NCBI GenBank assembly: GCA_900470155.1
Contig: UBZT01000009.1
Span: 1 to 64,000, forward strand
Direction: 5' to 3'
DNA: 64,000 nucleotides
Source: Hyphomicrobiales bacterium
GTDB lineage: Bacteria; Pseudomonadota; Alphaproteobacteria; Rhizobiales; Rhizobiaceae
In this document: positions 2,330 through 33,918 of the stretch, piece after piece
How the letters are laid out: the number at the start of each line of letters is the position of its first letter
Numbering within the stretch: position 1 is the stretch's first letter
The notes under the pieces: generated by a model
Seen by the model: the letters and a program-made list of their open reading frames with translations, nothing else
Told to the model about the DNA's origin: nothing
Database searches by the model: none
Translations under genes and position numbers: made by a program

Positions 2330-3409
2330 CTATTCCGCCGCCCGCACGGCCTCGGCCGCCGGACTTGCATCGCTTGCCGGACCTGCCGGAACTGATTGCA
2401 GCTTCGGCCCGCCGGCAATATCGACCGCGGCAAAGGCGTCCGCGATCAGCATCGGCGAAATCCCCGGCTTGGTCGCCTCCGACGACAGGATCTGCCGGAA
2501 CCGCCGCGCCCCGGCATAGCCCTGGAACAGCCCGACCATATGCCGGGTGACATGATTGAGCCGCCCGCCCGAGGCGATCACCTGCTCCGCATAGGCGACC
2601 ATCGTCGCACACAGCGCCGCCCAGTCGAAGTCCCACTCCGGCGCGCCGTAGATCAGATGGTCGACCCCGGTCAGAAGCGTCGAATTGTGATAACTCGCCC
2701 GCCCGAGCATAACCCCATCCATCACCGCCAGATGCGCCTTCGCCTCGGCAAGCGTGCTGATCCCGCCATTGATGCCGAGAAACACATCCGGGTTCTCCCG
2801 CTTCATCCGGTGGACCAGCGCATAGTCGAGCGGCGGAATGTCCCGGTTCTCCTTCGGGCTCAGCCCCTGCAGCCAGGCCTTGCGGGCATGGATCCACACC
2901 GCATCCGCCCCCGCCCCGACCATGCGCGCCAAAAAGTCCGGCAACACCTCTTCCGGCTCCTGATCATCCACCCCGATCCGGCACTTCACCGTCACCGGAA
3001 CCGAGGAGCTAGCCTTCATCGCCGCAACACAGGCCTCCACCGTCTGCGGCTCGCGCATCAGGCAGGCCCCGAACGTGCCCGACTGCACCCGGTCCGACGG
3101 GCAACCGACATTCAGGTTGATCTCGTCATAGCCATAGTCTGCCGCAATCTTCACCGCCTCGACAAGTTTGCCCGGATCCGACCCACCAAGCTGCAGCGCC
3201 ACCGGATGCTCCGCTTCATTGTAGGACAACAGCCTGTCGCGCGGCCCATGAAGGATCGCATCCGCCACCACCATCTCGGTATAGAGCAGCGCATGGCTGG
3301 TCAGCTGCCGCAAAAAATAACGACAGTGCCGATCCGTCCAGTCGATCATCGGCGCAACGGCGAAGACGGGAGCCTTGAAATAATTGAGGTTGTGTTGTTT
3401 TACCGGCAC
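2330..3409 (-). CDS. dusA: tRNA-dihydrouridine(20/20a) synthase DusA
   Basis: A 359-residue FMN-dependent enzyme that reduces U20/U20a in the tRNA D-loop using NADPH. Near the N-terminus it carries the DusA signature APMIDWTDRHCR. It then has NLNVGCPSDRVQ with the downstream FGACLM that holds the catalytic cysteine, and RIGVDD and GINGG further on. Length is normal. The start is a GTG at 3409 with an in-frame TAA directly upstream and no strong ribosome site. The extreme 5' end thus looks rebuilt, as expected where an integrative element has used the dusA 5' end as its attachment site. An integrase remnant begins 121 bases upstream on the other strand. Confidence 0.93.
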   Translation of the reverse strand: MPVKQHNLNYFKAPVFAVAPMIDWTDRHCRYFLRQLTSHALLYTEMVVADAILHGPRDRLLSYNEAEHPVALQLGGSDPGKLVEAVKIAADYGYDEINLNVGCPSDRVQSGTFGACLMREPQTVEACVAAMKASSSVPVTVKCRIGVDDQEPEEVLPDFLARMVGAGADAVWIHARKAWLQGLSPKENRDIPPLDYALVHRMKRENPDVFLGINGGISTLAEAKAHLAVMDGVMLGRASYHNSTLLTGVDHLIYGAPEWDFDWAALCATMVAYAEQVIASGGRLNHVTRHMVGLFQGYAGARRFRQILSSEATKPGISPMLIADAFAAVDIAGGPKLQSVPAGPASDASPAAEAVRAAE

Positions 3410-3477
3410 TTACGGCACTTTCTTCATCGTATTATCTACATTCGTTCGGCGTTATTTCCGCCGATTTTAACACTGGA

Positions 3478-3517
3478 TTTGGTCCAGTCGACCAAAGACA
3501 CTATTCCGCGGACCAAA
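3478..3517. promoter_or_regulatory. GACCAAA repeats before integrase remnant
   Basis: The heptamer GACCAAA occurs at 3490-3496 and 3511-3517, and its inverse TTTGGTC at 3478-3484. The first two form a 19-bp palindrome with a 5-nt centre. A second reading gives a 9-bp inverted repeat, ATTTGGTCC at 3477-3485 with GGACCAAAT at 3510-3518. The cluster ends 13 bases before the integrase start codon. It could be integrase arm-binding sites or an autoregulatory operator; function is inferred. Confidence 0.5.
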
Positions 3518-3530
3518 TTAGGGGCCGGTC

Positions 3531-3893
3531 ATGGGCACGATAAGCGCGCGCAAGCGCAAGGATGGCAGTGTCGCCTACCGGGCGCGAGTGCGGGTCATGC
3601 AGGACGGCGTGGCTTATCACGAGACTGAGACCTTTGACAGCCGTCCGGCGGCAACCGCCTGGATTTCAAAACGCGAGCCTGAGCGCACAGCGACTTGTAA
3701 ATCAGGCGTCTCTATCGAATACGAAACAACGACGCTGGTGCTAAATCGCTGCTTGTCTCGGCAGCTCCAAACGAATGCAGGCTTACTTTTGATAGTGACA
3801 GGGCAGCTCCCTTTTCCAATGATCTGTGTCTGTACGATGGACCGCGACCGATCGCCTCGGCAATTGCTTGCACGGAGACATCAGCAGCAATGA
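3531..3893 (+). pseudogene. Truncated tyrosine-integrase N-terminus
   Basis: The first 50 or so codons (3531 to about 3690) match the arm-type DNA-binding N-terminus of phage or island integrases: MGTISARKRKDGSVAYRARV, followed by TFDSRPAATAWISKREPE. After that the frame runs on for about 70 codons of sequence without integrase similarity and ends. The core-binding and catalytic domains are missing, so this is a stub of a 350-400 residue integrase. It lies next to the dusA 5' end and points away from it. That is the usual position of integrases of dusA-specific elements, so it probably marks a decayed insertion. Confidence 0.75.
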
Positions 3894-4047
3894 AAGCCCC
3901 GACGGTCATTGGCTGATCCCTCCCCGCCAGTCCCGGAGGAACTAAGTCGTAGTTGCCGGCAGGCGCTTGGAACTCAGCAAACAGGCTGACTGTAACAATG
4001 CTCTAACGTCTCTACGGTAGATTTGCATCGAACTGGGAGCAACCCGC

Positions 4048-6279
4048 GTGCGCATTGAATCTGACCTTCTACGTAATCTGCTTGTTTGCCAGGAGGAACA
4101 GCCTACGTCGACCCTTTCCCAGGATCTGGAATACGTGGCCAGTTTGCTCAGGGAGAACGGGCCGACGCTCGCCGACCGGTACAGCTGGCTTGAGGCGATG
4201 ATCAACCACGTCCCCGATTACATCTACGCGAAGGATCTCAATGGAAGGTTCCTGTTCGCGAATAACGCTGTTGTTCTCAACAATGGTCTGTCGAGCGTTG
4301 ACGAGCTCATCGGCCTGACCGATTACGACCTGCATGGCCCGGAACTCGCCGCGCCGATTGCAGAGATCGAGCAAAGAGTTATCGAATCGGGCATTGCCGA
4401 TCTTGGATATGAAGAACGTGCCCTCAAGGGTGGGCCCGACCGATGGCTGATGATGTCGCGCGTTCCCTTGAAGGACAGCGAAGGGAAAATCGTTGGTGTC
4501 GTCGGTGCGTCGCGCGACATTACCGCCCGGAAGATGTCCGAGCGACTGATGTCAGTACAGGCGCAGCTACTCGAGATGATCATTGCGGCGGTGCCCGCGA
4601 ATGAGTTCTTCGAGACGTTTTCTGCCCTGCTTGAGAAGGCCGCCGCCGATGTCGAAACAGCCATGTTCGTGCCCCATGGCAAGGCCGAACTAAGGCTGGC
4701 ATCCCGCTCCGTTCCTGGATGGCTCAAGGACACGAGAGTAAGCGTCGCCGATATGAGCACGGCAGCGCATGAGATGGAGCAGTTCGCCGCAAGCTTGCGG
4801 CACCCGAGGGACTACGTCCGGAGTGTCGAAATTCGCGCCTCCGACGGCAGCCTGCACGCCCTACTGGTCCTGACATTGTTCGGTCGCAGCCCCGAACCCT
4901 CGTTCAGCGAGTTCGTTACCTCTGCGGCGCGATTGGCTGGCATCGCTGTTGACCGCATCCTGGCTGAGAAACGAATCCGGTTCCTGGCAGAGCACGACGC
5001 ATTGACAGGATTGCTGAAACGCGACGGCCTCGACCACAAGCTGAAAGGGATCCTTACCCAAGCGGCACACGAAGGCACGCGGGTGGCTGTCGCATTTATA
5101 GACCTGGATAACTTCAAGCTGATCAATGACACTCTTGGCCACGACGCGGGGGACGAGCTCCTTAGGGAGGTTGCGGCCACCATCGCTGACACGATTGGAC
5201 CCGAGGGAATAGCGGCGCGCATTGGCGGTGACGAATTCGTCGTCGTCGTTCCTGGCGCCGGTGAAGACCTTATGGCTCAGGCACAGCAACTGAGGGGATC
5301 CATCAGTCGTCTTCACCTTGTGGAAGGGCATGAGTTGCGGGCAACAGCGAGCATCGGTCTGGCGGTGTTTCCTGACCATGGCGCAAGTCCCTCACAGCTT
5401 CTTGCACGTGCGGATCTAGCAATGTATCGCACGAAGCGAGACGGTCGTGACGGGGTGACACTCTTTGCCTTCGACATGGCGCAGGAGGCTTCGCAAAAAC
5501 TCCTTCGCCAAGAAGAATTGAGGCGCGCTTTGAACCGGGGTGAATTCCTCCTCCACTATCAGCCGCAGAAGAACCTGCGGACGGGGGTTATCACAGGCGT
5601 CGAGGCGCTTGTCAGGTGGAACCATCCGACGGAGGGCATGATCGCGCCCTGCAACTTCATACCAATGGCGGAGGAAAGTGGGCTTATCCTCGAGCTTGGC
5701 GCGTGGGTCTTGGAAAGGGCTTGTCGCCAGGGGAAAGATTGGCAAGATGCGGGATTTGCCCCTGTGAAGATCGGGGTAAACATGTCGGCACGACAGTTCC
5801 AGGATACTGGTCTAACCGAGATGGTGGCGGACGTGCTCGCACGCACGGGGCTTGATCCCCGATGGCTCGAAATTGAGATCACTGAGAGCCTCATCATGAA
5901 GGACATCGATGCAGCCGTCATTCGAATGGAAGAGTTGACGACGCTCGGAGTTGCCCTGGCATTGGACGATTTTGGCACGGGCTATTCGAGCCTGAGCATG
6001 CTGAAGCGCTTTCCACTGTCGAAACTTAAAATTGATCGCTCCTTCATTGTCGAATCTCCAAACAATCCCGACGACCGCGCGATCGTGTCGGCCATCATCT
6101 CGCTCGCAAAGACACTGGGGTTAGATGTACTGGCAGAGGGCGTGGAGACCGAGGCGCAGGCACAGTTTCTCCTTTCGGCGGGCTGCGATGAGGTTCAAGG
6201 CTTCCTGCTTGGCCGGCCCGAACCGCCGGAAGCGATTGAGCGGCTCCTCCCCGGCGAAAAGTCTAATCAGACCTTGTGA
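4048..6279 (+). CDS. PAS-GGDEF-EAL cyclic-di-GMP signalling protein
   Basis: A 743-residue cytoplasmic protein. The order is a short N-terminal helix, a PAS/PAC domain (about 45-165, ending VGASRDITARK), a GAF-like stretch (about 185-310), a diguanylate cyclase domain and an EAL phosphodiesterase domain. Both enzyme sites look intact. RIGGDEF puts GGDEF at 393-397. EAL is at 519-521 (GVEALVRW), DDFGTGYSS starts at 640, and AEGVETE is near the end. It may make and degrade c-di-GMP in response to a PAS-sensed signal. No membrane segment is seen. The start is GTG at 4048 with a GGAG site 10 nt upstream. It stands alone between two integrase remnants, which suggests it arrived as cargo. Confidence 0.93.
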   Translation: MRIESDLLRNLLVCQEEQPTSTLSQDLEYVASLLRENGPTLADRYSWLEAMINHVPDYIYAKDLNGRFLFANNAVVLNNGLSSVDELIGLTDYDLHGPELAAPIAEIEQRVIESGIADLGYEERALKGGPDRWLMMSRVPLKDSEGKIVGVVGASRDITARKMSERLMSVQAQLLEMIIAAVPANEFFETFSALLEKAAADVETAMFVPHGKAELRLASRSVPGWLKDTRVSVADMSTAAHEMEQFAASLRHPRDYVRSVEIRASDGSLHALLVLTLFGRSPEPSFSEFVTSAARLAGIAVDRILAEKRIRFLAEHDALTGLLKRDGLDHKLKGILTQAAHEGTRVAVAFIDLDNFKLINDTLGHDAGDELLREVAATIADTIGPEGIAARIGGDEFVVVVPGAGEDLMAQAQQLRGSISRLHLVEGHELRATASIGLAVFPDHGASPSQLLARADLAMYRTKRDGRDGVTLFAFDMAQEASQKLLRQEELRRALNRGEFLLHYQPQKNLRTGVITGVEALVRWNHPTEGMIAPCNFIPMAEESGLILELGAWVLERACRQGKDWQDAGFAPVKIGVNMSARQFQDTGLTEMVADVLARTGLDPRWLEIEITESLIMKDIDAAVIRMEELTTLGVALALDDFGTGYSSLSMLKRFPLSKLKIDRSFIVESPNNPDDRAIVSAIISLAKTLGLDVLAEGVETEAQAQFLLSAGCDEVQGFLLGRPEPPEAIERLLPGEKSNQTL

Positions 6280-6483
6280 AAAGCTGTTGTCTCGGAGCGA
6301 CTGAACGACGAGGACGTAGTCCGGCTTGTGAAACGGACTGCAATGACCGCCAGTGTTCGAGGTGAACTCAGCGCGATCCAGCGCGCGTTCAAGTCCTCCG
6401 GTCATCCGCTTCGCGCTGAGCTTGCATCCTCTGCTGACGTCGACGAACGCTACGTCGGAAGCGACGAGACCTCACCCCAATGA
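6280..6483 (+). pseudogene. C-terminal fragment of a second integrase
   Basis: Directly after the EAL stop and in the same frame, 67 codons read as part of the catalytic domain of a tyrosine recombinase: LNDEDVVRLVKRTA, then a degraded GHPLRAELASSADVDERYV. The last piece matches the HxxR-box segment (usually GHSLRAGLA) of rhizobial-type integrases. The catalytic Tyr region is missing and the frame ends at a TGA. It is from a different family than the stub at 3531. There is no start codon of its own, so it is a relic. Confidence 0.65.
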
Positions 6484-6556
6484 AGGCGTCTTGAAGTGGC
6501 TCCACGGGCTGGACGAAGACCGCAGGTTTATCAGCATCGCGTCGGTAGCCGAAATT
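6455..6556 (+). pseudogene. VapC-like PIN toxin fragment
   Basis: In the +2 frame overlapping the end of the integrase relic, 34 codons read SEATRPHPNEGVLKWL then LDEDRRFISIASVAEI. This matches the segment after the first acidic residues of type II VapC toxins (usually SE..P.P.V..WL, DED..F.S..T.AEI). The first Asp of the PIN site and everything after the AEI helix are missing. No antitoxin is visible. It is a 100-bp relic that ends where the next gene ends. Confidence 0.55.
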
Positions 6557-6823
6557 CTAACGTCCGTCGGGGAAATCGAATTCGATGGAACGCCTGCTGA
6601 TCAGTTTCAGCGAACGGTCGGGCTGAACCCTGTAGGTTTCTTCCGCCCGGCGGCCGTTTTGATCGATGAGGCGTTTCGTAAACGTACTGCCGACCGGCGC
6701 TTTGGTCAGCTTCGTCTGTGGCTGGCCACCATAGGTTATGCTGCCCGGAATAGGCTCGACAGCCGGCGCGGAACACCCGGCAAGTACCATCATCATCAAA
6801 ATAGTCGATGCGACATTTCTCAT
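6557..6823 (-). CDS. Small predicted lipoprotein
   Basis: An 88-residue protein with a clear lipoprotein signal. The sequence MRNVASTILMMMVLAGC gives the lipobox LAGC with Cys17. The mature part contains PGSITYGGQPQTKLTKAPVG and QPDRSLKLISRR. I believe I have seen related small lipoproteins of unknown function in Rhizobiaceae, but cannot name one. The ATG at 6823 is preferred over an upstream in-frame start at 6946 because it places the signal peptide at the N-terminus. It sits among gene fragments and may itself be the only intact survivor. No partner gene is evident. Confidence 0.65.
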   Translation of the reverse strand: MRNVASTILMMMVLAGCSAPAVEPIPGSITYGGQPQTKLTKAPVGSTFTKRLIDQNGRRAEETYRVQPDRSLKLISRRSIEFDFPDGR

Positions 6824-6961
6824 AGCCTTGCATCCCATGACTTTGCACCCAATTCTGCCACCGTTCATCGGGCCGATCCTGCGCCGAATAGGTATAGATA
6901 ATCCATTGACCTCGACTGGGCATTTCAAGGCTGCGTGATCAGTCAATTTTCGATCACCAGA

Positions 6962-7309
6962 CGGAACGTGTTCTGCAGGTCGTGTTCACATCCACGCGCG
7001 GCAGCACAACGAAGGGCTCCTGCCAGATTTTCAAAGTGCCCAGGACGCGATGTTCCATGAACATCAGTTTCCAGTTGTCGTGGCGCAGGGCCGCGACGTC
7101 CCCCTCGTCTGTGAAGTGATGAACCCTTGCGCGGACTTCTCTAATCCTTGCCTGAGAGATACGGCAGAAGGTTGTAGCGGTCGAGATGCACCTTGTAGAT
7201 CTTGCTGCCGGCCCTGTGACCCCTCTTGGGCTTCTATCGATATCCGCATCACCTGCCACGGCCAGGATCGTCGGAAACCAGTCCTGATGGCTGATGATCT
7301 GGTTTGATT
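6962..7309 (-). pseudogene. Arylsulfatase C-terminal fragment, frameshifted
   Basis: Read on the minus strand, the fragment starts with ISHQDWFPTILAVAGD. After frame changes it gives KIYKVHLDRYNLLPYLSGKD and then HFTDEGDVAALRHDNWKLMF and GTLKIWQEPFVVL. These are consecutive conserved segments of the C-terminal third of arylsulfatases. At least two frameshifts interrupt it, both ends are truncated, and the catalytic formylglycine site is absent. It cannot make a working enzyme. Sulfatase cargo was probably present in this region earlier. Confidence 0.7.
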
Positions 7310-7370
7310 CCGAGCCCGCCTTGGACTTGCTGGGGTACCGTCTATTTTATGTCATTCCCGAGACTCAATC

Positions 7371-7399
7371 TTGACAGACGTACTCATATTTCCGATGTG
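7371..7399 (+). promoter_or_regulatory. Possible promoter of the TonB receptor operon
   Basis: A perfect TTGACA at 7371-7376 is followed 17 nt later by a weak -10 (GATGTG at 7394-7399). It lies just before the hairpin at 7401-7423 and the receptor start. The -35 box is good and the -10 poor, as often in regulated alphaproteobacterial promoters. No experimental support. Confidence 0.3.
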
Positions 7400-7400
7400 A

Positions 7401-7423
7401 AACATGACTCTTCGAGTCATGTT
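7401..7423. promoter_or_regulatory. Perfect palindrome upstream of TonB receptor
   Basis: AACATGACT (7401-7409) and AGTCATGTT (7415-7423) form a perfect 9-bp inverted repeat around CTTCG. It ends 5 bases before the ribosome site and just downstream of the putative promoter. It could be a repressor operator, for example for a metal-responsive regulator, or an RNA hairpin with a TTCG-like loop near the start codon. It does not match a classical Fur box. Confidence 0.5.
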
Positions 7424-7439
7424 AAATGGGGGATAGGTG

Positions 7440-9614
7440 ATGCGTTTGACTGTCGGGCCGCTTGCAGCGGCTCTTTTGGGTTTCGTCGGTACGAATGGCG
7501 CATATGCGCAAGACGCAGACACAGTTCTGAACCCAATTGTAATCTCGGGGAAAAGCGATCGTCTTTGCATTCCGGCGGGACAGAAGCGCGCCGAGGGCGA
7601 CCGGCGACCGCTCTGCGTTGGCGAAGGCATTGCTCGCAACAACGTGCCCGGCGACACTTTCGACCGCAACCAGCTTGATCGTTTGCCGGCCGGTTCCCAG
7701 GCACAGGATTTCGTCAAGCGCCTTCCCGGTGTCATGACTGGAGGTGCTCCGGGCGAAGACAAAGATGCCCGCGTTCTTGGCATGGACAAGGAATATACCC
7801 GCACCTCTATCGACGGCATCATTCTGCCGGATGGCGGTGAAAAGCGCGAATTCAACCTCGACAGCCTTCCGGCTGGCTTGGTCGACTCCGTCGAAGTGAT
7901 CCGCGGTCGCCGCGCGGACATGGAGGCTGACGGTCTGGCCGGACGCATCGACGTCAAGCTCGCAGACATTCCGGAGACACCGCGTTATGAGGCCCACAGT
8001 GCGATCGGTGGCAGTTCAGATGGTCAGACACTGTTCGATCTCGGCATCCTTGGCGGCGGCATGTATTCCGATGATTTCGGCGCCCAGGGCGGCCTGACGC
8101 GCGCCAGAAATTCCAACAGCAAGACCAAGGGAAAGTTCACGTCGACCGGCCTCCTGTCCGAAGCCGAAGACGAGAACAAGTCGATGAACACCTTCGGCGC
8201 CCTCGCCGACATTCTGTGGCAGAACGATGCAAATGCGTTCCACTTGAAACCCTTGCTGCTTGGTCTTGATGAGGACAAGGACAAGGTCAAATACAAGTAC
8301 AAGGCAAACGGCACGTCGAACGGCACTGAAACGGAAGTCGAGGAAAAGGAAAAGCGCACCTATGGCGCCAGCGGGTCGTGGCGACACGATTTCGATAGCT
8401 GGGTGGGTGCCAGCGTGGAAATGCTCGCGGGGCACTACCGCACCACGGAAAAGAAGGACAAGGGCAAGCGCATATTTACCGCAGCCGGCGTCGAAACCAC
8501 CAACAAATACGAGACGGAAATCGAGGACAAGCTCGATCGGGTGACCTTTGCCCAGGTCGATGTTCTTCTGCCCTTCGAACTGGGTGGCATACAACACGAT
8601 GTAAAGACCGGTACCCTTCTGCGCGTCCGTGACCGGACCAAGGACAAGCAGAAGACCGTTGGCGGCGTGGTTCAGGTGCAGGAAGCCAAGGAAGTCTATG
8701 CGATCGATGAAACCGTCTGGGCAGGTTATGTTCTGGATGAAATCGACTTCGGCAACGGCTTGACCATCGCACCAGGCGTCCGGTTTGAGGCGAGCGATCT
8801 GGATGCAGCGATTGCCGACGGCACATCTGGCGGTGGCAATGTGTTCGATATCCTGCCATCGCTGCCGGTCCATTTCCAGGCGACGGACGACTGGTCCATC
8901 GATGCCAGCGTCGCACGTTTGGTCAACAGGCCGAAATTCGACAACCTGATCCCCCAGCAGTCGAATACGCTGCTCGGCAATCCTGATCTCGATCCGGAGC
9001 GGGCCTGGGCCTTCGATACCAGCGTCACCTATGAGACCGATGATCTCGAGCTCTCCTTCGGCCTCTTCCATCGCGCGATCGAGGATCTGATGGAGACTGT
9101 CGATACCGGACGTCTGAACAGCGACGGCGACAGCATCTATCAGTATCAGAATGTCGGCAACGGCTGGACAAACGGCATCATCCTCAGCCAGCGCGTCAGC
9201 CTCGCGGCACTGAACGCACCGGTGCTGAACGGCTTCTCTATCTTTGCGACCCAAACCTTCGCCCGCAGCAAGGTGACTGAGGCTGATGGTACGACGCGGG
9301 AATTCAAGGAACAGGCGCCGTTCTTCGCCGATCTGGCGGTCGAATGGACAGATCCGAGCGACAGGCTCTCCCTGTCCGCGGGCCTCGGATATACCGCGAA
9401 AATCCATTCCGCCGGCGACAGCGCCAACGAATCCCGCGACGCGGAACTCTCGCTTGATCTGGCAATGAACTACCAACTCACCGAGACATTCGAGCTTTAT
9501 GCACTCGCCAAGAACGTCACAGGGACCGAGCGCGTCACGCATAAATCGGACGGTACGACGGAAATCCAGGAAGGCGTAAAGAGCTATTTCGCCGGTATCC
9601 GCGCGAAATTCTGA
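7440..9614 (+). CDS. TonB-dependent outer-membrane receptor
   Basis: A 724-residue outer-membrane receptor. The signal peptide ends at AYA-QD (about residue 23). A TonB-box-like stretch (DTVLNPIVISG) follows, then a plug domain (about 60-180, with RLPGVMTGG and VDSVEVIRGR) and a beta-barrel ending in AKF with terminal Phe. Two Cys in the N-terminal region (LCIPAGQ and PLCVGEG) are unusual and may form a disulfide. The substrate is unknown; such receptors import ferric siderophores, haem, metals or cobalamin, powered by TonB. The ATG at 7440 is used because GGGGG sits 7 nt upstream; a GTG at 7437 is also possible. It leads a five-gene operon containing a Bfd-like protein, which points to iron. 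Confidence 0.92.
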   Translation: MRLTVGPLAAALLGFVGTNGAYAQDADTVLNPIVISGKSDRLCIPAGQKRAEGDRRPLCVGEGIARNNVPGDTFDRNQLDRLPAGSQAQDFVKRLPGVMTGGAPGEDKDARVLGMDKEYTRTSIDGIILPDGGEKREFNLDSLPAGLVDSVEVIRGRRADMEADGLAGRIDVKLADIPETPRYEAHSAIGGSSDGQTLFDLGILGGGMYSDDFGAQGGLTRARNSNSKTKGKFTSTGLLSEAEDENKSMNTFGALADILWQNDANAFHLKPLLLGLDEDKDKVKYKYKANGTSNGTETEVEEKEKRTYGASGSWRHDFDSWVGASVEMLAGHYRTTEKKDKGKRIFTAAGVETTNKYETEIEDKLDRVTFAQVDVLLPFELGGIQHDVKTGTLLRVRDRTKDKQKTVGGVVQVQEAKEVYAIDETVWAGYVLDEIDFGNGLTIAPGVRFEASDLDAAIADGTSGGGNVFDILPSLPVHFQATDDWSIDASVARLVNRPKFDNLIPQQSNTLLGNPDLDPERAWAFDTSVTYETDDLELSFGLFHRAIEDLMETVDTGRLNSDGDSIYQYQNVGNGWTNGIILSQRVSLAALNAPVLNGFSIFATQTFARSKVTEADGTTREFKEQAPFFADLAVEWTDPSDRLSLSAGLGYTAKIHSAGDSANESRDAELSLDLAMNYQLTETFELYALAKNVTGTERVTHKSDGTTEIQEGVKSYFAGIRAKF

Positions 9615-9623
9615 CCCAAGGAC

Positions 9624-9653
9624 GCACAGCCCGCAATCGTCAGCGGGCTGTGC
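9624..9653 (+). terminator. Hairpin between TonB receptor and next gene
   Basis: A perfect 11-bp stem (GCACAGCCCGC at 9624-9634, GCGGGCTGTGC at 9643-9653) with an 8-nt loop starts 10 bases after the receptor stop. No T-run follows. It is more likely an RNA-processing or partial-attenuation element that lowers expression of the downstream genes than a full terminator. Confidence 0.5.
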
Positions 9654-9682
9654 AAGTCAACGTCACCCCATCAGGAATGGTC

Positions 9683-10672
9683 ATGCAGGTGCTGGAAACA
9701 AAAGGGCCGATCGCATCGATAACCGGAGCCGGGCATTGTCCGCGCACGCCAATCCCAACCCTGATTTGGGAGTTGGTGATCATGATGCTGGCTCACCCCT
9801 GGCTTTTGGCCCTGACGGTTCTGCCCAACATCGTCACCCCGGCGCTTGCGCCAATTCAGGCGTGGTTCGCCAAGGAAGTGCTTCTGGAAATCTCCGAAGG
9901 CGACAGGATGTTCAGCCTGGTTGAACTGCTGACCTACACGCCCTACGCCGTCGCGATTTTCCTCGGCCTGTCCCTTCTTCACATCGTCGAGAAAGTCACC
10001 AACCGCATGTATGACGACCGACTGCTGATCGACGTGCAGCGGCGCTGGTTCGAAATCCGCGGAGATGGCAATCCGGGCAATCATGTCGCCAAGGCCACCA
10101 ATGACTGCAAGAATGTCGTCAAGATTTTCGATCTCGCGCAAAAGGACATGTGGGTCGTTCTGATCGGCGTTCCGGCCGTGCTGATCTGGCAGACGACACT
10201 GTCTCCGGAACTGCTTCCGGCATTGCTGGTATCGGCCCTCGTCCCGTTTCTGGCATCCTTGACATTCGGCGCCTTGATCCAGCGGCTCAGCCATACCGGA
10301 CTGGTGCTGCTTGGCAGTGTCAGTTCCGCCGTTGCCGATGGCGATCGGCTGAAACTCCACCGCGAACAGGAAAAGCTCTATTCCAACCGCATCCGCTTCG
10401 AGCTCTACAAACAGGCCAGCGAGGCGATCAGCGACTTCGCCTTCTGGGTTTCGCTGGTTTTCCTGCTCATCATGTCACTGAGCGGCCTATGGAAACTCCT
10501 GCCGGACGAACTGTCAGCGGTGCAGATCGGGGTGTTTCTGGTCAACCTGAAACTTCTCAATCAGCCGCTTAGCGCCGTCACCAAAATGCACAACAAGATC
10601 CGTGAATGCTGGCCCTCTGTGCGACGCGCGCTTCGCCCGCATGAAACCCGCGCAGAGGAGTATGCCGTATGA
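9683..10672 (+). CDS. Six-helix ABC-type membrane protein lacking ATPase
   Basis: A 329-residue inner-membrane protein that resembles the transmembrane half of a type I ABC exporter. I match it to the ABC_membrane_3 type of stand-alone six-helix proteins. Hydrophobic segments lie around residues 28-60, 90-108, 160-205 and 255-300, with a charged loop (VQRRWFEIRGDG) like the intracellular loop of exporters. No Walker A, signature or Walker B sequence exists, so an ATPase would have to come from elsewhere or is not used. The start at ATG 9683 follows AGGA; upstream in-frame starts at 9677 and 9650 are less likely. The stop overlaps the next start by 4 bases. It may move the cargo of the TonB receptor, or a product made from it, across the inner membrane (inference). 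Confidence 0.72.
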   Translation: MQVLETKGPIASITGAGHCPRTPIPTLIWELVIMMLAHPWLLALTVLPNIVTPALAPIQAWFAKEVLLEISEGDRMFSLVELLTYTPYAVAIFLGLSLLHIVEKVTNRMYDDRLLIDVQRRWFEIRGDGNPGNHVAKATNDCKNVVKIFDLAQKDMWVVLIGVPAVLIWQTTLSPELLPALLVSALVPFLASLTFGALIQRLSHTGLVLLGSVSSAVADGDRLKLHREQEKLYSNRIRFELYKQASEAISDFAFWVSLVFLLIMSLSGLWKLLPDELSAVQIGVFLVNLKLLNQPLSAVTKMHNKIRECWPSVRRALRPHETRAEEYAV

Positions 10673-10968
10673 CCTGCCGGACCAGCTGCACCTGCCACGA
10701 TATTGACGAGGAGACCTTCCGTGCCGCCTGCCGCGCCGGGGCTCACAATGTCAAAACCTGCTTCAGATCCATCGGATGCATGCCCAAGTGCAACAACTGC
10801 ATTCCGCTGGTGAGAAGTGTGCTGAGTGAATTTCAGAACTCGGCACATACCGACGTCGCTTTAGTGGCGACGAAACTGCAAGCTTCAAAAAATGAGGATA
10901 CATATGAAGCAGATGTTCAAGACCAAAATCGCCCACATGCTGGACAATGGAGACAAGCTGGAGCTTGA
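10669..10968 (+). CDS. Bfd-like [2Fe-2S] protein
   Basis: A 99-residue protein. Residues 1-55 resemble bacterioferritin-associated ferredoxin and BFD domains, with Cys7-x-Cys9 and Cys41-x2-Cys44 in the expected spacing for a [2Fe-2S] cluster. The flanking sequence (FRAACRAGA, and GCMPKCNNCIPLV) is typical. Bfd donates electrons to release iron from bacterioferritin. A domain of this kind in a TonB operon suggests reductive iron release from the imported ligand. Extra Cys occur at 3, 21, 31 and 37. The C-terminal 40 residues are not Bfd-like and overlap the next gene by 65 bases in another frame. The start overlaps the previous stop (ATGA). Confidence 0.75.
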   Translation: MTCRTSCTCHDIDEETFRAACRAGAHNVKTCFRSIGCMPKCNNCIPLVRSVLSEFQNSAHTDVALVATKLQASKNEDTYEADVQDQNRPHAGQWRQAGA

Positions 10969-11110
10969 GGCATTCGTCGAGGCCACCAGCCACGACGACG
11001 CTTTTGCCCAGGCCCAGCAGCGTCTGCAATCCGTTGTTGCGGAACTTGCCGGCAAGGGTGAGATCGACATCGACAAGAGCAAGATTGAGCTCGGCGCTCA
11101 CAAGCACTGA
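10904..11110 (+). CDS. Small unknown protein of the TonB operon (1)
   Basis: A 68-residue, charged, soluble protein (MKQMFKTKIAHMLDNGDKLE...). It has a central helical Gln/Ala-rich part (DDAFAQAQQRLQ) and ends GAHKH. I do not recognise a family. The ATG at 10904 is chosen because TGAGGA stands 5-6 nt upstream; an ATG at 10892 in the same frame has no ribosome site. The first 65 bases overlap the tail of the Bfd-like gene in a different frame, indicating translational coupling or an old frameshift. The next gene begins 9 bases after its stop. Confidence 0.6.
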   Translation: MKQMFKTKIAHMLDNGDKLELEAFVEATSHDDAFAQAQQRLQSVVAELAGKGEIDIDKSKIELGAHKH

Positions 11111-11119
11111 GGATTGCTC

Positions 11120-11560
11120 ATGACGATGCACGAAAGCAAAGTGCTTTTGAATTCGTTCTGGGAACTCTCAGTCGATATTCAGCAAGCCGTTGCCCGGTTT
11201 CTCGTCGGTTCCAAACTCGGGGAAATCATCGTCGCGAAGGCGCATGGTGTCACCGAGGTCGAGATCAACTATTTCCGCCATGGTGCGGTTTACAAGCTGA
11301 TCTGGGACGACACCACCAAGAAGATTCTTGGCGGCACGGAAGCGATCGTGATCAACGAAGTTCTATCCGTGCTCACGCCGGAGGCACGCAAGATCGTCGT
11401 GGAAGGTGGCCATGCCATCCGCCATATCAAGATCAAGCATGCCGACTTCGATGATCGCGAATACCTTCACGTGCAATACCTTGGCGAAGATCGCCATATC
11501 ACCGGCCGCAAGCTGGAGATGGACGGTCGCCAGTTCGTCAAGCAGTACCGCACCGCTTGA
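11120..11560 (+). CDS. Small unknown protein of the TonB operon (2)
   Basis: A 146-residue soluble protein without signal peptide or membrane helix, and no family that I recognise. It has a helical N-terminal part (SFWELSVDIQQAVARFLVG) and a beta-rich, His-rich C-terminal part (GGHAIRHIKIKHADF, then DRHITGRKLEMDG). Several His residues in the second part could bind a metal or haem, but that is inference. ATG 11120 follows GAGG by 7 nt. It is the last gene of the operon started by the TonB receptor. A role in handling the imported ligand in the cytoplasm would fit. Confidence 0.65.
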   Translation: MTMHESKVLLNSFWELSVDIQQAVARFLVGSKLGEIIVAKAHGVTEVEINYFRHGAVYKLIWDDTTKKILGGTEAIVINEVLSVLTPEARKIVVEGGHAIRHIKIKHADFDDREYLHVQYLGEDRHITGRKLEMDGRQFVKQYRTA

Positions 11561-11727
11561 CGCACAGGCCTTGAACAGAGCCCTCACGTTCGCGTGGGGG
11601 CTCACGCCGATTGCACGAGGAGTGTGAACCAGGGGGACGAGCTCTGGACTTCGACTGTTAGCTTCCCACGCCTTGCCGTTGGGCTACCTGCCACCTGTCA
11701 GCCGACTTTTGTCAAATTGGGGCGTCC

Positions 11728-32902: not shown

Positions 32903-33918
32903 TCGAGCCCGAAACCTCCACGCCGCTTCTGGAAGTCCATGGCCTGGTCAAGGAATTTGCCGTCGGGCGCGGGCTGATCTTCAACAAGCCGACCGGCCAT
33001 GTTCGCGCCGTCAACGGCGTTTCGTTCAAGCTGGCGCCCGGCGAGACGCTCGGCCTGGTGGGTGAATCAGGCTGCGGCAAGTCCACGCTCGGCCGCTGCA
33101 TCATGCGGCTGCTGACACCCTCGTCCGGCGAAGTCCGCATGGCCGGCCGCGATATCGCTGCAGCATCCCCCAAGGAACTGCGCGCCATCCGCCAGGACCT
33201 GCAGATCGTCTTCCAGGACCCGATGGCCTCGCTACATCCGCGCATGACGATGCGGCGCATCCTCGAAGAGCCCTTGCGGCTGAAAAACATGTCGCGGCCC
33301 GACATGCGCCGGCGCGTCGACGAATTGCTGGACCTCGTGCAATTGTCGCTGGAGATGGCGGATCGCTTTCCCCACGAGCTCTCGGGCGGCCAGCGCCAGC
33401 GCATTGGCATCGCTCGCGCGCTGGCGCTCCAGCCGAAGCTGATCGTGCTGGACGAGCCTGTCTCGGCGCTCGATGTCTCGGTCCAGGCCGGCGTGCTGAA
33501 CCTGCTTCAGGGCCTGCAACAACGATTTGGCATTTCCTACCTGTTCATCGCCCACGATCTGGCGGTGGTCAAACACATCTCACACCGTGTGGCCGTGATG
33601 TATCTCGGCGGCATCGTCGAGATCGCGTCGGCTGAAGACCTCTATCACAGGCCACAGCACCCTTACACGCAGGCGCTGCTGTCCGCCGTGCCATTGCCGG
33701 ATCCCGACGCCGAGAAGGGTCGCAACCGCATCGTGCTGCAGGGCGACGTGCCCAGCCCGATGGATCCGCCGAGCGGCTGCCGGTTCCGCACCCGCTGCTG
33801 GAAGGCGACCAACACATGCGCACGGCTGGAGCCTGCGCTGCGGCAGCGCACCGACGGACATTTCTTCGCATGCCATCATCCCGACGATGCAGCTCTACAG
33901 ACCGCTGGAGCACAATAA
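32899..33918 (+). CDS. Dpp/Opp-type ABC ATPase (DppF-like)
   Basis: A 339-residue ATPase partner. Walker A is [11 protein letters not shown], the signature [15 protein letters not shown], Walker [13 protein letters not shown] and the switch IAHDLAVV. The usual C-terminal zone has [15 protein letters not shown]. The start overlaps the DppD-like stop by 4 bases (ATGA) and its own stop overlaps the next start by one base, showing tight operon structure. Confidence 0.95.

What the first reader, a model, noticed from the sequence alone, without database searches (positions are those of the whole stretch)
7371..11560. TonB operon with ATPase-less ABC membrane protein, Bfd-like protein and two small unknowns
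Seen: five co-oriented genes with overlaps or short gaps: TonB receptor, six-helix ABC-exporter-like membrane protein without nucleotide-binding domain, [2Fe-2S] Bfd-like protein, and soluble proteins of 68 and 146 residues. A hairpin follows the receptor, and a palindrome and possible promoter precede it. Known: TonB receptors import iron complexes, haem, metals or cobalamin, and Bfd-type domains donate electrons for iron release. Inference: this is a complete import-and-release pathway for an iron-bearing or other redox-labile ligand that does not use a classical periplasmic-binding ABC importer. I know of no described system with this five-gene layout. The small proteins could be carriers or chaperones for the ligand.
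Basis: partly seen in the sequence, partly recalled or inferred. Interest (0 to 1): 0.78.

Follow-up and report, generated by a model that had tools for sequence, protein, structure and literature searches.

The report
Likely iron-import operon lacking an ATPase
A rare group of five neighbouring bacterial genes, also found together in a distantly related bacterium, looks like an iron-switched pathway that brings an iron compound into the cell through an inner-membrane protein that resembles an ABC transporter without its ATP-burning motor.

Summary
The five genes are real: a TonB receptor, a six-helix membrane protein, a Bfd-like protein, and soluble proteins of 68 and 146 residues. All five recur in Zobellella iuensis (Gammaproteobacteria, 37-74% identical) and Rhizobium sp. 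PDO1-076 (89-96%). An unnamed gammaproteobacterium has the first four; an alphaproteobacterial MAG has receptor plus membrane protein. Otherwise the set is very rare.

The membrane protein is not ABC_membrane_3. It is an undescribed family, distantly related to type IV ABC-exporter membrane domains, and ends where the ATPase would begin in all five sequences. The 146-residue protein models as a PepSY-like (DUF2874) fold without signal peptide. The Bfd-like protein has seven invariant cysteines but scores below the Pfam cut-off.

Two TGA-N9-TCA boxes precede the operon in both rhizobia, the genome encodes RirA, and Zobellella has a Fur-like box, so iron control is the best reading.

Best explanation: a horizontally moved system importing a ferric chelate, the membrane protein being the inner-membrane step, with cytoplasmic reductive release. 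Driving force, ligand and small-protein roles are inferred. Closest precedents: SbmA/BacA, YbtPQ/IrtAB, HiuABC. Novelty: new variant of a known kind.

The parts
7371..7386 (+). TTGACA hexamer (7371-7376) overlapped by first TGA-N9-TCA box (7372-7386, TGACAGACGTACTCA)
   Evidence: Present in L014 two bases further from the start codon (TGACAGTCCTACTCA); two boxes in 180 bases reached by 0.0025 (window) and 0.001 (L014) of 2000 dinucleotide shuffles
7401..7423 (.). Perfect inverted repeat with 10-bp arms containing the second TGA-N9-TCA box (7405-7419); proposed RirA operator
   Evidence: the same box in L014, at the same offset, lies inside a 22-bp-arm inverted repeat. rirA is in the genome
7440..9614 (+). 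TonB-dependent outer-membrane receptor, 724 aa, hydrophobic N terminus fitting a signal peptide
   Evidence: PF00593 E 9.8e-33 and Plug PF07715 E 4.7e-10; below cut-off of the 10 NCBIfam models hit; 90/37/25% identical in L014/L015/L009
9624..9653 (+). Hairpin between receptor and membrane-protein genes, no U-run
   Evidence: z -3.75; hairpin with different stem letters at the same place in L014, z -6.48
9683..10672 (+). Six-helix membrane protein distantly related to type IV ABC-exporter membrane domains, no nucleotide-binding domain (alternative start 9677; longest frame 9650)
   Evidence: Profile match to ABC transporter 9kwi_B, whole-sequence E 1.5e-4, best single stretch only 0.7; PF00664 in 1 of 5 members, E 1.2e-4, 22.3 bits against a cut-off of 28; 50 of 50 Foldseek rows shown are ABC transporters, from a weak model, pLDDT 52.5; all five sequences end after helix 6
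10669..10968 (+). Bfd-like protein, 99 aa; CxC-x31-CxxC plus three further invariant cysteines
   Evidence: PF04324 hit in 4 of 4 members at E<=1 (22.1, 22.1, 14.5 and 24 bits), all below the cut-off of 26; cysteines; profile found no PDB sequence at E<=1
10904..11110 (+). 68-aa soluble protein of unknown family, ends GAHKH
   Evidence: 96, 74 and 42% identical in L014, L015, L021; no Pfam family for the window protein at E<=1
11120..11560 (+). 146-aa soluble protein with modelled PepSY-like (DUF2874) fold and no signal peptide
   Evidence: Model pLDDT 72.5; 3due Z 9.6, rmsd 2.9, 112 aligned; hydropathy; 58% identical in L015

Best explanation
The operon is an iron-repressed, horizontally moved uptake system for an iron-bearing chelate, most likely a xenosiderophore. 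When iron is short, RirA leaves the two IRO boxes and the genes are read. The TonB receptor takes the ferric chelate into the periplasm. The membrane protein, a dimer of type IV ABC-exporter-like membrane domains without ATPase, carries the chelate across the inner membrane, driven by the proton gradient as in SbmA/BacA. In the cytoplasm the Bfd-like [2Fe-2S] protein, helped by the PepSY-like 146-aa protein and the 68-aa protein as chelate- or partner-binding subunits, gives electrons to Fe(III) and releases Fe(II). Shown: gene set, its recurrence, absence of the ATPase, cysteine motif, TGA-N9-TCA boxes and a rirA gene. Inferred: RirA binding, ligand, direction of transport, dimer and proton drive, the iron-sulphur cluster, electron transfer and the roles of the two small proteins.
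For: Five-gene recurrence in another class and four genes in G1291. Receptor and membrane protein adjacent in all five family loci, including the MAG. Two TGA-N9-TCA boxes in both rhizobia, shuffle fractions 0.0025 and 0.001; rirA present at 285.9 bits against a cut-off of 193; TGA-N9-TCA as RirA motif, and 5 of 10 RirA ChIP peaks carrying it in Sinorhizobium fredii, seen in passages of PMC8822346. Fur-like 14/19 box upstream in Zobellella, shuffle fraction 0.004. Distant relationship to ABC membrane domains. No LSGG[QMEHR] in L009, L014, L015 or L021, and none nearer than 33379 in the window. Ferredoxin cysteine motif kept in 4 of 4. Precedents from passages: SbmA, proton-driven with ABC membrane fold and no NBD (PMC13316013); YbtPQ, IrtAB and Rv1819c, importers with exporter fold (PMC10967856).
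Against: No expression or transport data. The MAG has no convincing Fur-like box (11/19, reached by 0.999 of shuffles) and G1291's best is 12/19 (0.379). The MAG lacks genes 3-5 in the stretch read, and G1291 has no gene 5 next to gene 4, so these are not essential to the receptor/membrane pair. The ABC relationship is weak by sequence: best single stretch E 0.7, PF00664 below cut-off in the one member that hits, model pLDDT 52.5. The stretch aligned to the exporter's first cytoplasmic loop keeps a G-E and an N-D pair, which could fit an ATPase from elsewhere; PMC13316013 says SbmA-type transporters lack coupling helices. No glutamate ladder is evident: of 9 acidic residues invariant in 5 of 5, 8 lie outside the hydrophobic stretches. 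The Bfd-like proteins are below the Pfam cut-off in 4 of 4 and their profile found no PDB sequence at E<=1. Of 7 places in the genome with one mismatch to the palindrome core, only 1 lies directly before a gene that I read by eye as iron-type ABC uptake, and 1 more inside such an operon.
Confidence: 0.45

Rival explanations
1. The membrane protein is the membrane half of an ATP-driven type IV importer (YbtPQ/IrtAB-like) that borrows a nucleotide-binding subunit encoded elsewhere.
For: The cytoplasmic-loop stretch keeps exporter-like residues in the profile alignment; PMC13316013 notes YddA-clade proteins with separately encoded domains (passage).
Against: No LSGG[QMEHR] signature in the four relative loci examined (L009, L014, L015, L021), and none close in the window (a regular expression, so a deviant signature would be missed); a shared partner would have to exist in several distant hosts.
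Confidence: 0.2
2. The membrane protein does not carry the chelate; iron is released in the periplasm or enters by another transporter, and the protein is a regulator, exporter of the emptied chelator or redox partner, as in HiuABC-type systems where the inner-membrane route is unknown.
For: HiuABC has TBDT, PepSY protein and small membrane protein but no ABC parts (passages of PMC12424826); most proteins of exporter fold export; a PepSY-like partner is present.
Against: The PepSY-like protein and the Bfd-like protein lack signal peptides by hydropathy, so the redox parts look cytoplasmic; only one His, H49, is invariant in the membrane protein, so no haem ligation as described for FoxB/HiuB is evident.
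Confidence: 0.2
3. The ligand is haem, copper or another metal complex rather than a ferric siderophore.
For: Below-cut-off similarity to haem-receptor models; a TBDT/PepSY_TM copper family exists (CrtA, PMC12914433, passages).
Against: RirA-type and Fur-like boxes favour iron, though haem would fit these too; PMC12914433 reports no Fur-binding site at the crtA promoter; the PepSY-like protein here is soluble, not PepSY_TM.
Confidence: 0.22
4. The five genes are neighbours without a joint function.
For: The MAG stretch has only two of them and G1291 four; the receptor is divergent in L015, L021 and L009.
Against: Genes 2-5 keep order and orientation between window and Zobellella at 54-74% identity; the rhizobial copies share DNA from the promoter on (7363) but nothing further upstream at blastn E<=1e-5.
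Confidence: 0.07

Closest known systems
SbmA/BacA (SLiPT family)
   Same: ABC-type membrane domain without nucleotide-binding domain, import across the inner membrane (passages of PMC13316013)
   Different: No SbmA/BacA family among Pfam hits at E<=1; PDB profile search at E<=1 returned two ABC transporters, not SbmA; glutamate ladder not evident; sits in an iron-type operon with a TonB receptor
YbtPQ, IrtAB, Rv1819c (importers with type IV exporter fold)
   Same: Exporter-type membrane domain; YbtPQ and IrtAB import siderophores (PMC10967856 passages; PMC10246721, start of abstract in the listing)
   Different: Those are ABC transporters with ATPase domains; this protein ends after helix 6 in 5 of 5 sequences
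HiuABC of Caulobacter crescentus
   Same: Iron-regulated TBDT operon with PepSY-type protein and no ABC importer parts (passages of PMC12424826)
   Different: HiuB is a PepSY membrane protein similar to the periplasmic reductase FoxB, and HiuC a small membrane protein; here a soluble PepSY-like protein, a Bfd-like protein and an ABC-type membrane protein
Bacterioferritin-associated ferredoxin (Bfd, PF04324)
   Same: CxC-x31-CxxC motif; PF04324 matched nearly end to end
   Different: Below the cut-off of 26 in 4 of 4 (22.1, 22.1, 14.5, 24 bits); three further invariant cysteines (C21, C31, C37)
Single-component siderophore permeases (FptX, RhtX, FiuB, FegB; recalled, no call)
   Same: One membrane protein replaces an ABC importer
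   Different: Those belong to other membrane-protein families, by recall
DUF2874/PepSY-like proteins (3due, 3elg, 3db7)
   Same: Fold of the model, Z 9.4-9.6 over 112-115 residues
   Different: Those are titled putative periplasmic proteins; this one has no signal peptide and no Pfam hit to the family

Membership tests
ABC_membrane_3 (PF13748) | Match to the Pfam model over its cut-off | tested here: not met
   0 matches at E<=0.001 in the whole genome; not among hits at E<=1 for any of 5 members
Type IV ABC transporter membrane domain | Sequence relationship to exporter membrane domains | tested here: inconclusive
   A3 profile to 9kwi_B and 8wcw_B, whole-sequence E 1.5e-4 and 1.8e-4, the only two PDB sequences at E<=1, but best single stretch 0.7; PF00664 in 1 of 5 members, E 1.2e-4, 22.3 bits against 28
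Type IV ABC transporter membrane domain | Six-helix exporter fold | tested here: inconclusive
   Model pLDDT 52.5 with six long helices; best Foldseek E 2.4e-4 to MsbA, TM 0.42; 3 rows at E<=0.001; 50 of 50 rows shown ABC transporters
ABC transporter (full) | Fused or neighbouring nucleotide-binding domain | tested here: not met
   ORF ends after helix 6 in 5 of 5; no LSGG[QMEHR] in L009, L014, L015 or L021, and in the window only at 33379 and 39132; a distant partner is not excluded
SbmA/BacA (SLiPT) | Match to the SbmA/BacA Pfam family | tested here: not met
   Not among Pfam hits at E<=1 for any of 5 members
SbmA/BacA (SLiPT) | No nucleotide-binding domain | tested here: met
SbmA/BacA (SLiPT) | Glutamate ladder and proton coupling | tested here: inconclusive
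   Invariant E76, E114, E187, E241, E251, E258; no reliable model to place them; coupling not testable
TonB-dependent receptor | Plug and beta-barrel domains over Pfam cut-off | tested here: met
   PF07715 40.4 bits (cut-off 23.9), PF00593 115.1 bits (27)
Characterised receptor orthologue | NCBIfam receptor model over cut-off | tested here: not met
   All 10 models hit are below cut-off for P0001
Bfd (PF04324) | CxC-x31-CxxC cysteines | tested here: met
   C7, C9, C41, C44 invariant in 4 of 4
Bfd (PF04324) | Pfam gathering score | tested here: not met
   22.1, 22.1, 14.5 and 24 bits against 26; profile without PDB match at E<=1; hence called Bfd-like only
PepSY-like / DUF2874 | Fold | tested here: inconclusive
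   Z 9.6, rmsd 2.9, 112 aligned to 3due on a pLDDT 72.5 model; the tool's note gives 7-8 as typical best Z for models without a clear match; best Foldseek E 4.9e-3, none at E<=0.001
PepSY-like / DUF2874 | Exported (signal peptide) | tested here: not met
   Highest 15-residue mean hydropathy starting in residues 1-16 is 0.99
RirA regulon | TGA-N9-TCA palindrome upstream and rirA in the genome | tested here: met
   motif as described in PMC8822346 (passages)
RirA regulon | Binding by RirA and response to iron | not testable with these tools
   Needs an experiment

The most novel reading that the evidence does not exclude
The membrane protein founds a second family, separate from SbmA/BacA, of ABC-fold proteins that lost their ATPase and became gradient-driven importers, this one for ferric chelates, with its own cytoplasmic release module of a seven-cysteine Bfd-like protein, a soluble PepSY-like protein and a 68-residue protein, spreading between bacterial classes as one cassette.
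Probability: 0.27. Interest if true: 0.75.

Novelty: new variant of a known kind. Interest (0 to 1): 0.55.

Why it matters
How ferric chelates or their iron cross the inner membrane in TonB systems that lack an ABC importer is open (PMC12424826 says so for HiuABC, passage). This operon offers a candidate protein with a testable mechanism, and a test of whether loss of the ATPase and a switch to another energy source happened more than once in the ABC membrane fold. It also supplies protein families without a known role that are tied to iron uptake by neighbourhood and operator sites.

Tried and rejected
ABC_membrane_3 label: rejected.

Other collections: no relative of P0001 (E<=1e-20), P0002 (E<=1e-3) or P0004 (E<=0.01) in plasmids; P0003 found one weak 2Fe-2S protein in Skermanella rosea (35%, E 4e-3), not followed; P0005 found only a 34-residue match in Agrobacterium sp. 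MA01, as did the operon's DNA in distant mode. A megablast of 3000-11700 found only the GGDEF/EAL neighbour in Rhizobium sp. WL3. Viral contigs gave no relative of P0002. The phages collection was not searched.

Genome G013 (24% identity, L002/L010): a protein of similar type without ATPase, but its neighbours are, read by eye, a two-component system and PepSY-type proteins, no TonB receptor; the weak receptor hit there (E 0.079) lies on the other strand of the sensor-kinase gene and was dropped. Further weak hits with open frames of 575-685 aa (G177, G076, G206, G900, G930, G976, G1132, G1498) I take for full-length ABC transporters from frame length alone; dropped from the family. A 24-residue match of gene 5 in the MAG locus (E 0.03) was dropped as chance.

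Reading the 68-aa protein as a ribosomal-peptide precursor (methanobactin-like operon, by recall): rejected because it is conserved along its length, has no cysteine in the window copy and looks like a folded domain.

Reading the 5' palindrome as a Fur box: best 10/19 in the window, reached by 0.938 of shuffles.

First palindrome pattern, with a wrong spacer, gave 0 matches; the corrected one with up to 2 mismatches gave 1 against 2.34 expected.

Stenotrophomonas hemP-hemA operon as a precedent: passages of PMC9241770 show no matching parts; not used.

Finding the five-gene set in print: the searches listed no paper that I recognised as describing it; of most listed papers only title and start of abstract were seen.

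Families not listed by the VIA comparison are not excluded.

Full report
WHAT IS THERE. The window holds five co-oriented intact genes at 7440-11560: a TonB-dependent receptor of 724 aa, a membrane protein ending at 10672, a 99-aa Bfd-like protein, a 68-aa protein and a 146-aa protein. Genes 2 and 3 overlap by 4 bases, 3 and 4 by 65, and 4 and 5 are 9 bases apart. The membrane protein most likely starts at ATG 9683 or 9677, because GTG 9650 is not kept in the close relative L014. Neighbours are a PAS/GGDEF/EAL protein upstream and an Lrp/AsnC regulator divergent from a proline dehydrogenase/aldehyde dehydrogenase (PutA-type) gene downstream; I see no link to the operon.

THE PROTEINS. The receptor has Plug and barrel domains over the Pfam cut-offs but lies below the cut-off of all 10 NCBIfam models it hits. 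The membrane protein matches no Pfam family over cut-off and not ABC_membrane_3. A profile of four homologues finds two PDB sequences at E<=1, both ABC transporters (whole-sequence E 1.5e-4 and 1.8e-4; for the first, the best stretch on its own is only 0.7). One of five homologues hits PF00664 (E 1.2e-4, 22.3 bits, cut-off 28). A low-confidence model (pLDDT 52.5) gives ABC transporters in 50 of 50 Foldseek rows shown (3 rows at E<=0.001, best 2.4e-4, TM 0.42). Each signal is modest; together they make an ABC-type membrane domain the best reading. All five sequences end just after the sixth long helix. No LSGG[QMEHR] signature lies in L009, L014, L015 or L021, and the two in the window are at 33379 and 39132. 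The Bfd-like protein has C7-x-C9-x31-C41-xx-C44 and three more invariant cysteines (C21, C31, C37) in 4 of 4 sequences; PF04324 is hit in 4 of 4 at E<=1 but below its cut-off of 26 in all (22.1, 22.1, 14.5, 24 bits), and the profile finds no PDB sequence at E<=1. The 146-aa protein has no Pfam family over cut-off and no PDB relative by sequence; its model (pLDDT 72.5) aligns with DUF2874/PepSY-like proteins (3due Z 9.6, rmsd 2.9, 112 aligned; the four best rows Z 8.2-9.6, all putative periplasmic proteins of Bacteroides, the fifth row 5.4). Foldseek's best E is only 4.9e-3. It has no signal peptide by hydropathy. The 68-aa protein has no known family.

RECURRENCE. In Zobellella the receptor is divergent and genes 2-5 follow in the same order; identities are 37, 55, 54, 74 and 58% for genes 1-5. 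A search around it found G1291, with receptor divergent (35% by tblastn) and membrane protein, Bfd-like and 68-aa protein (52, 51, 42%). Its contig ends 135 bases beyond the 68-aa gene, and no frame of those bases resembles the start of gene 5, so gene 5 is not next door there. The MAG stretch has only receptor and membrane protein, divergent. So the full set is seen in three genomes of two classes, four genes in a fourth, two in a fifth.

RARITY. Genomes with a membrane-protein match at E<=0.001, self included: 5 of 297 in the order, 2 of 385 in the class, 4 of 398 in the phylum, 3 of 295 in the order of Zobellella, 2 of 303 in the class of G1291, 1 of 24 in its family. After dropping weak matches with long open frames and G013, only self, G358, Zobellella and G1291 remain. 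Gene 5: 1 of 121 in the host family, self. Gene 4: 1 of 168 in the order of Zobellella, itself. The groups overlap, so these counts must not be added.

MOVEMENT. Between window and L014 the DNA similarity starts at 7363, the promoter, runs to the L014 contig end, and nothing upstream is shared at blastn E<=1e-5. Agrobacterium sp. MA01 carries on a 311-kb plasmid only the last stretch of gene 5 and the bases after it (window 11462-11579, 81%), a remnant. With the 54-74% identity of genes 2-5 between two classes and their rarity this points to horizontal transfer and loss. The operon is slightly poorer in G+C than its window (0.576 against 0.603).

CONTROL. Two TGA-N9-TCA boxes lie upstream at 7372-7386 and 7405-7419; both recur in L014, the second at the same distance from the start codon, the first two bases off. 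Two or more boxes occur in 0.0025 (window) and 0.001 (L014) of 2000 dinucleotide shuffles; the two tests are not independent. The perfect palindrome core occurs at one place in the genome; with up to two mismatches there are 111 sites against 27 for the reversed pattern. Of the seven sites with one mismatch, one lies directly before and one inside what I read by eye as iron-type ABC operons; the others show no such link. The genome has a RirA equivalog (NF008886, 285.9 bits, cut-off 193). TGA-N9-TCA as the RirA motif, found in 5 of 10 ChIP peaks, is from passages of PMC8822346. In Zobellella a 14/19 Fur-like box lies in the divergent region (0.004 of 1000 shuffles); G1291 has 12/19 (0.379) and the MAG 11/19 (0.999) (consensus recalled). 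So iron control is well supported in the rhizobia, suggested in Zobellella, unsupported in the other two.

HOW IT LIKELY WORKS. Receptor into periplasm, ATPase-less ABC-type protein across the inner membrane, cytoplasmic reduction by the Bfd-like protein with the two small proteins as partners. Precedents, from passages: SbmA shows that this fold can run on protons without an ATPase (PMC13316013); YbtPQ, IrtAB and Rv1819c show that it can import (PMC10967856); HiuABC shows TonB-linked iron use with a PepSY partner and no known inner-membrane carrier (PMC12424826). Against a simple SbmA analogy, the profile alignment keeps residues of the first cytoplasmic loop, and the nine invariant acidic residues do not form an evident ladder. 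I give 0.45 to the full explanation.

NOVELTY. Each element is of a known kind, but the membrane-protein family, the seven-cysteine Bfd-like protein, the soluble PepSY-like protein and the 68-aa protein, and their combination, were not met in the searches. Those cover an open-licence library only. I file it as a new variant of a known kind, not as a member of SLiPT, ABC_membrane_3 or Bfd.

Noticed in passing
L014:5721-5767: In Rhizobium sp. PDO1-076 the second box sits in a perfect inverted repeat with 22-bp arms that pairs the likely ribosome-binding site (RNA fold -43.9 kcal/mol, z -12.35); the window keeps only the inner 10 bp perfectly (z -3.14), so an added RNA-level control is possible.
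   Followed up: partly
10904-10968: 65 bases code for the end of the Bfd-like protein and the start of the 68-aa protein in two frames; the same overlap is in L014, but not in L015 or L021.
   Followed up: partly
7566-7616 (receptor residues 43-59): The two rhizobial receptors carry an N-terminal stretch with two cysteines that is absent from the Zobellella and MAG receptors.
   Followed up: no
L008:12007-12122: Remnant of the end of gene 5 on plasmid punanmed2 of Agrobacterium sp. MA01, without the rest of the operon.
   Followed up: partly
L010:6720-7694: Another protein without ATPase distantly like the membrane protein (24%) sits between what look by eye like a two-component system and PepSY-type proteins, without a TonB receptor.
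   Followed up: partly
9624-9653: Hairpin between genes 1 and 2, present in L014 with different stem letters; could tune the ratio of receptor to the later genes.
   Followed up: partly
33379 (+) and 39132 (-): Two ABC ATPase signatures with Walker A elsewhere in the window, presumably of other transporters.
   Followed up: no
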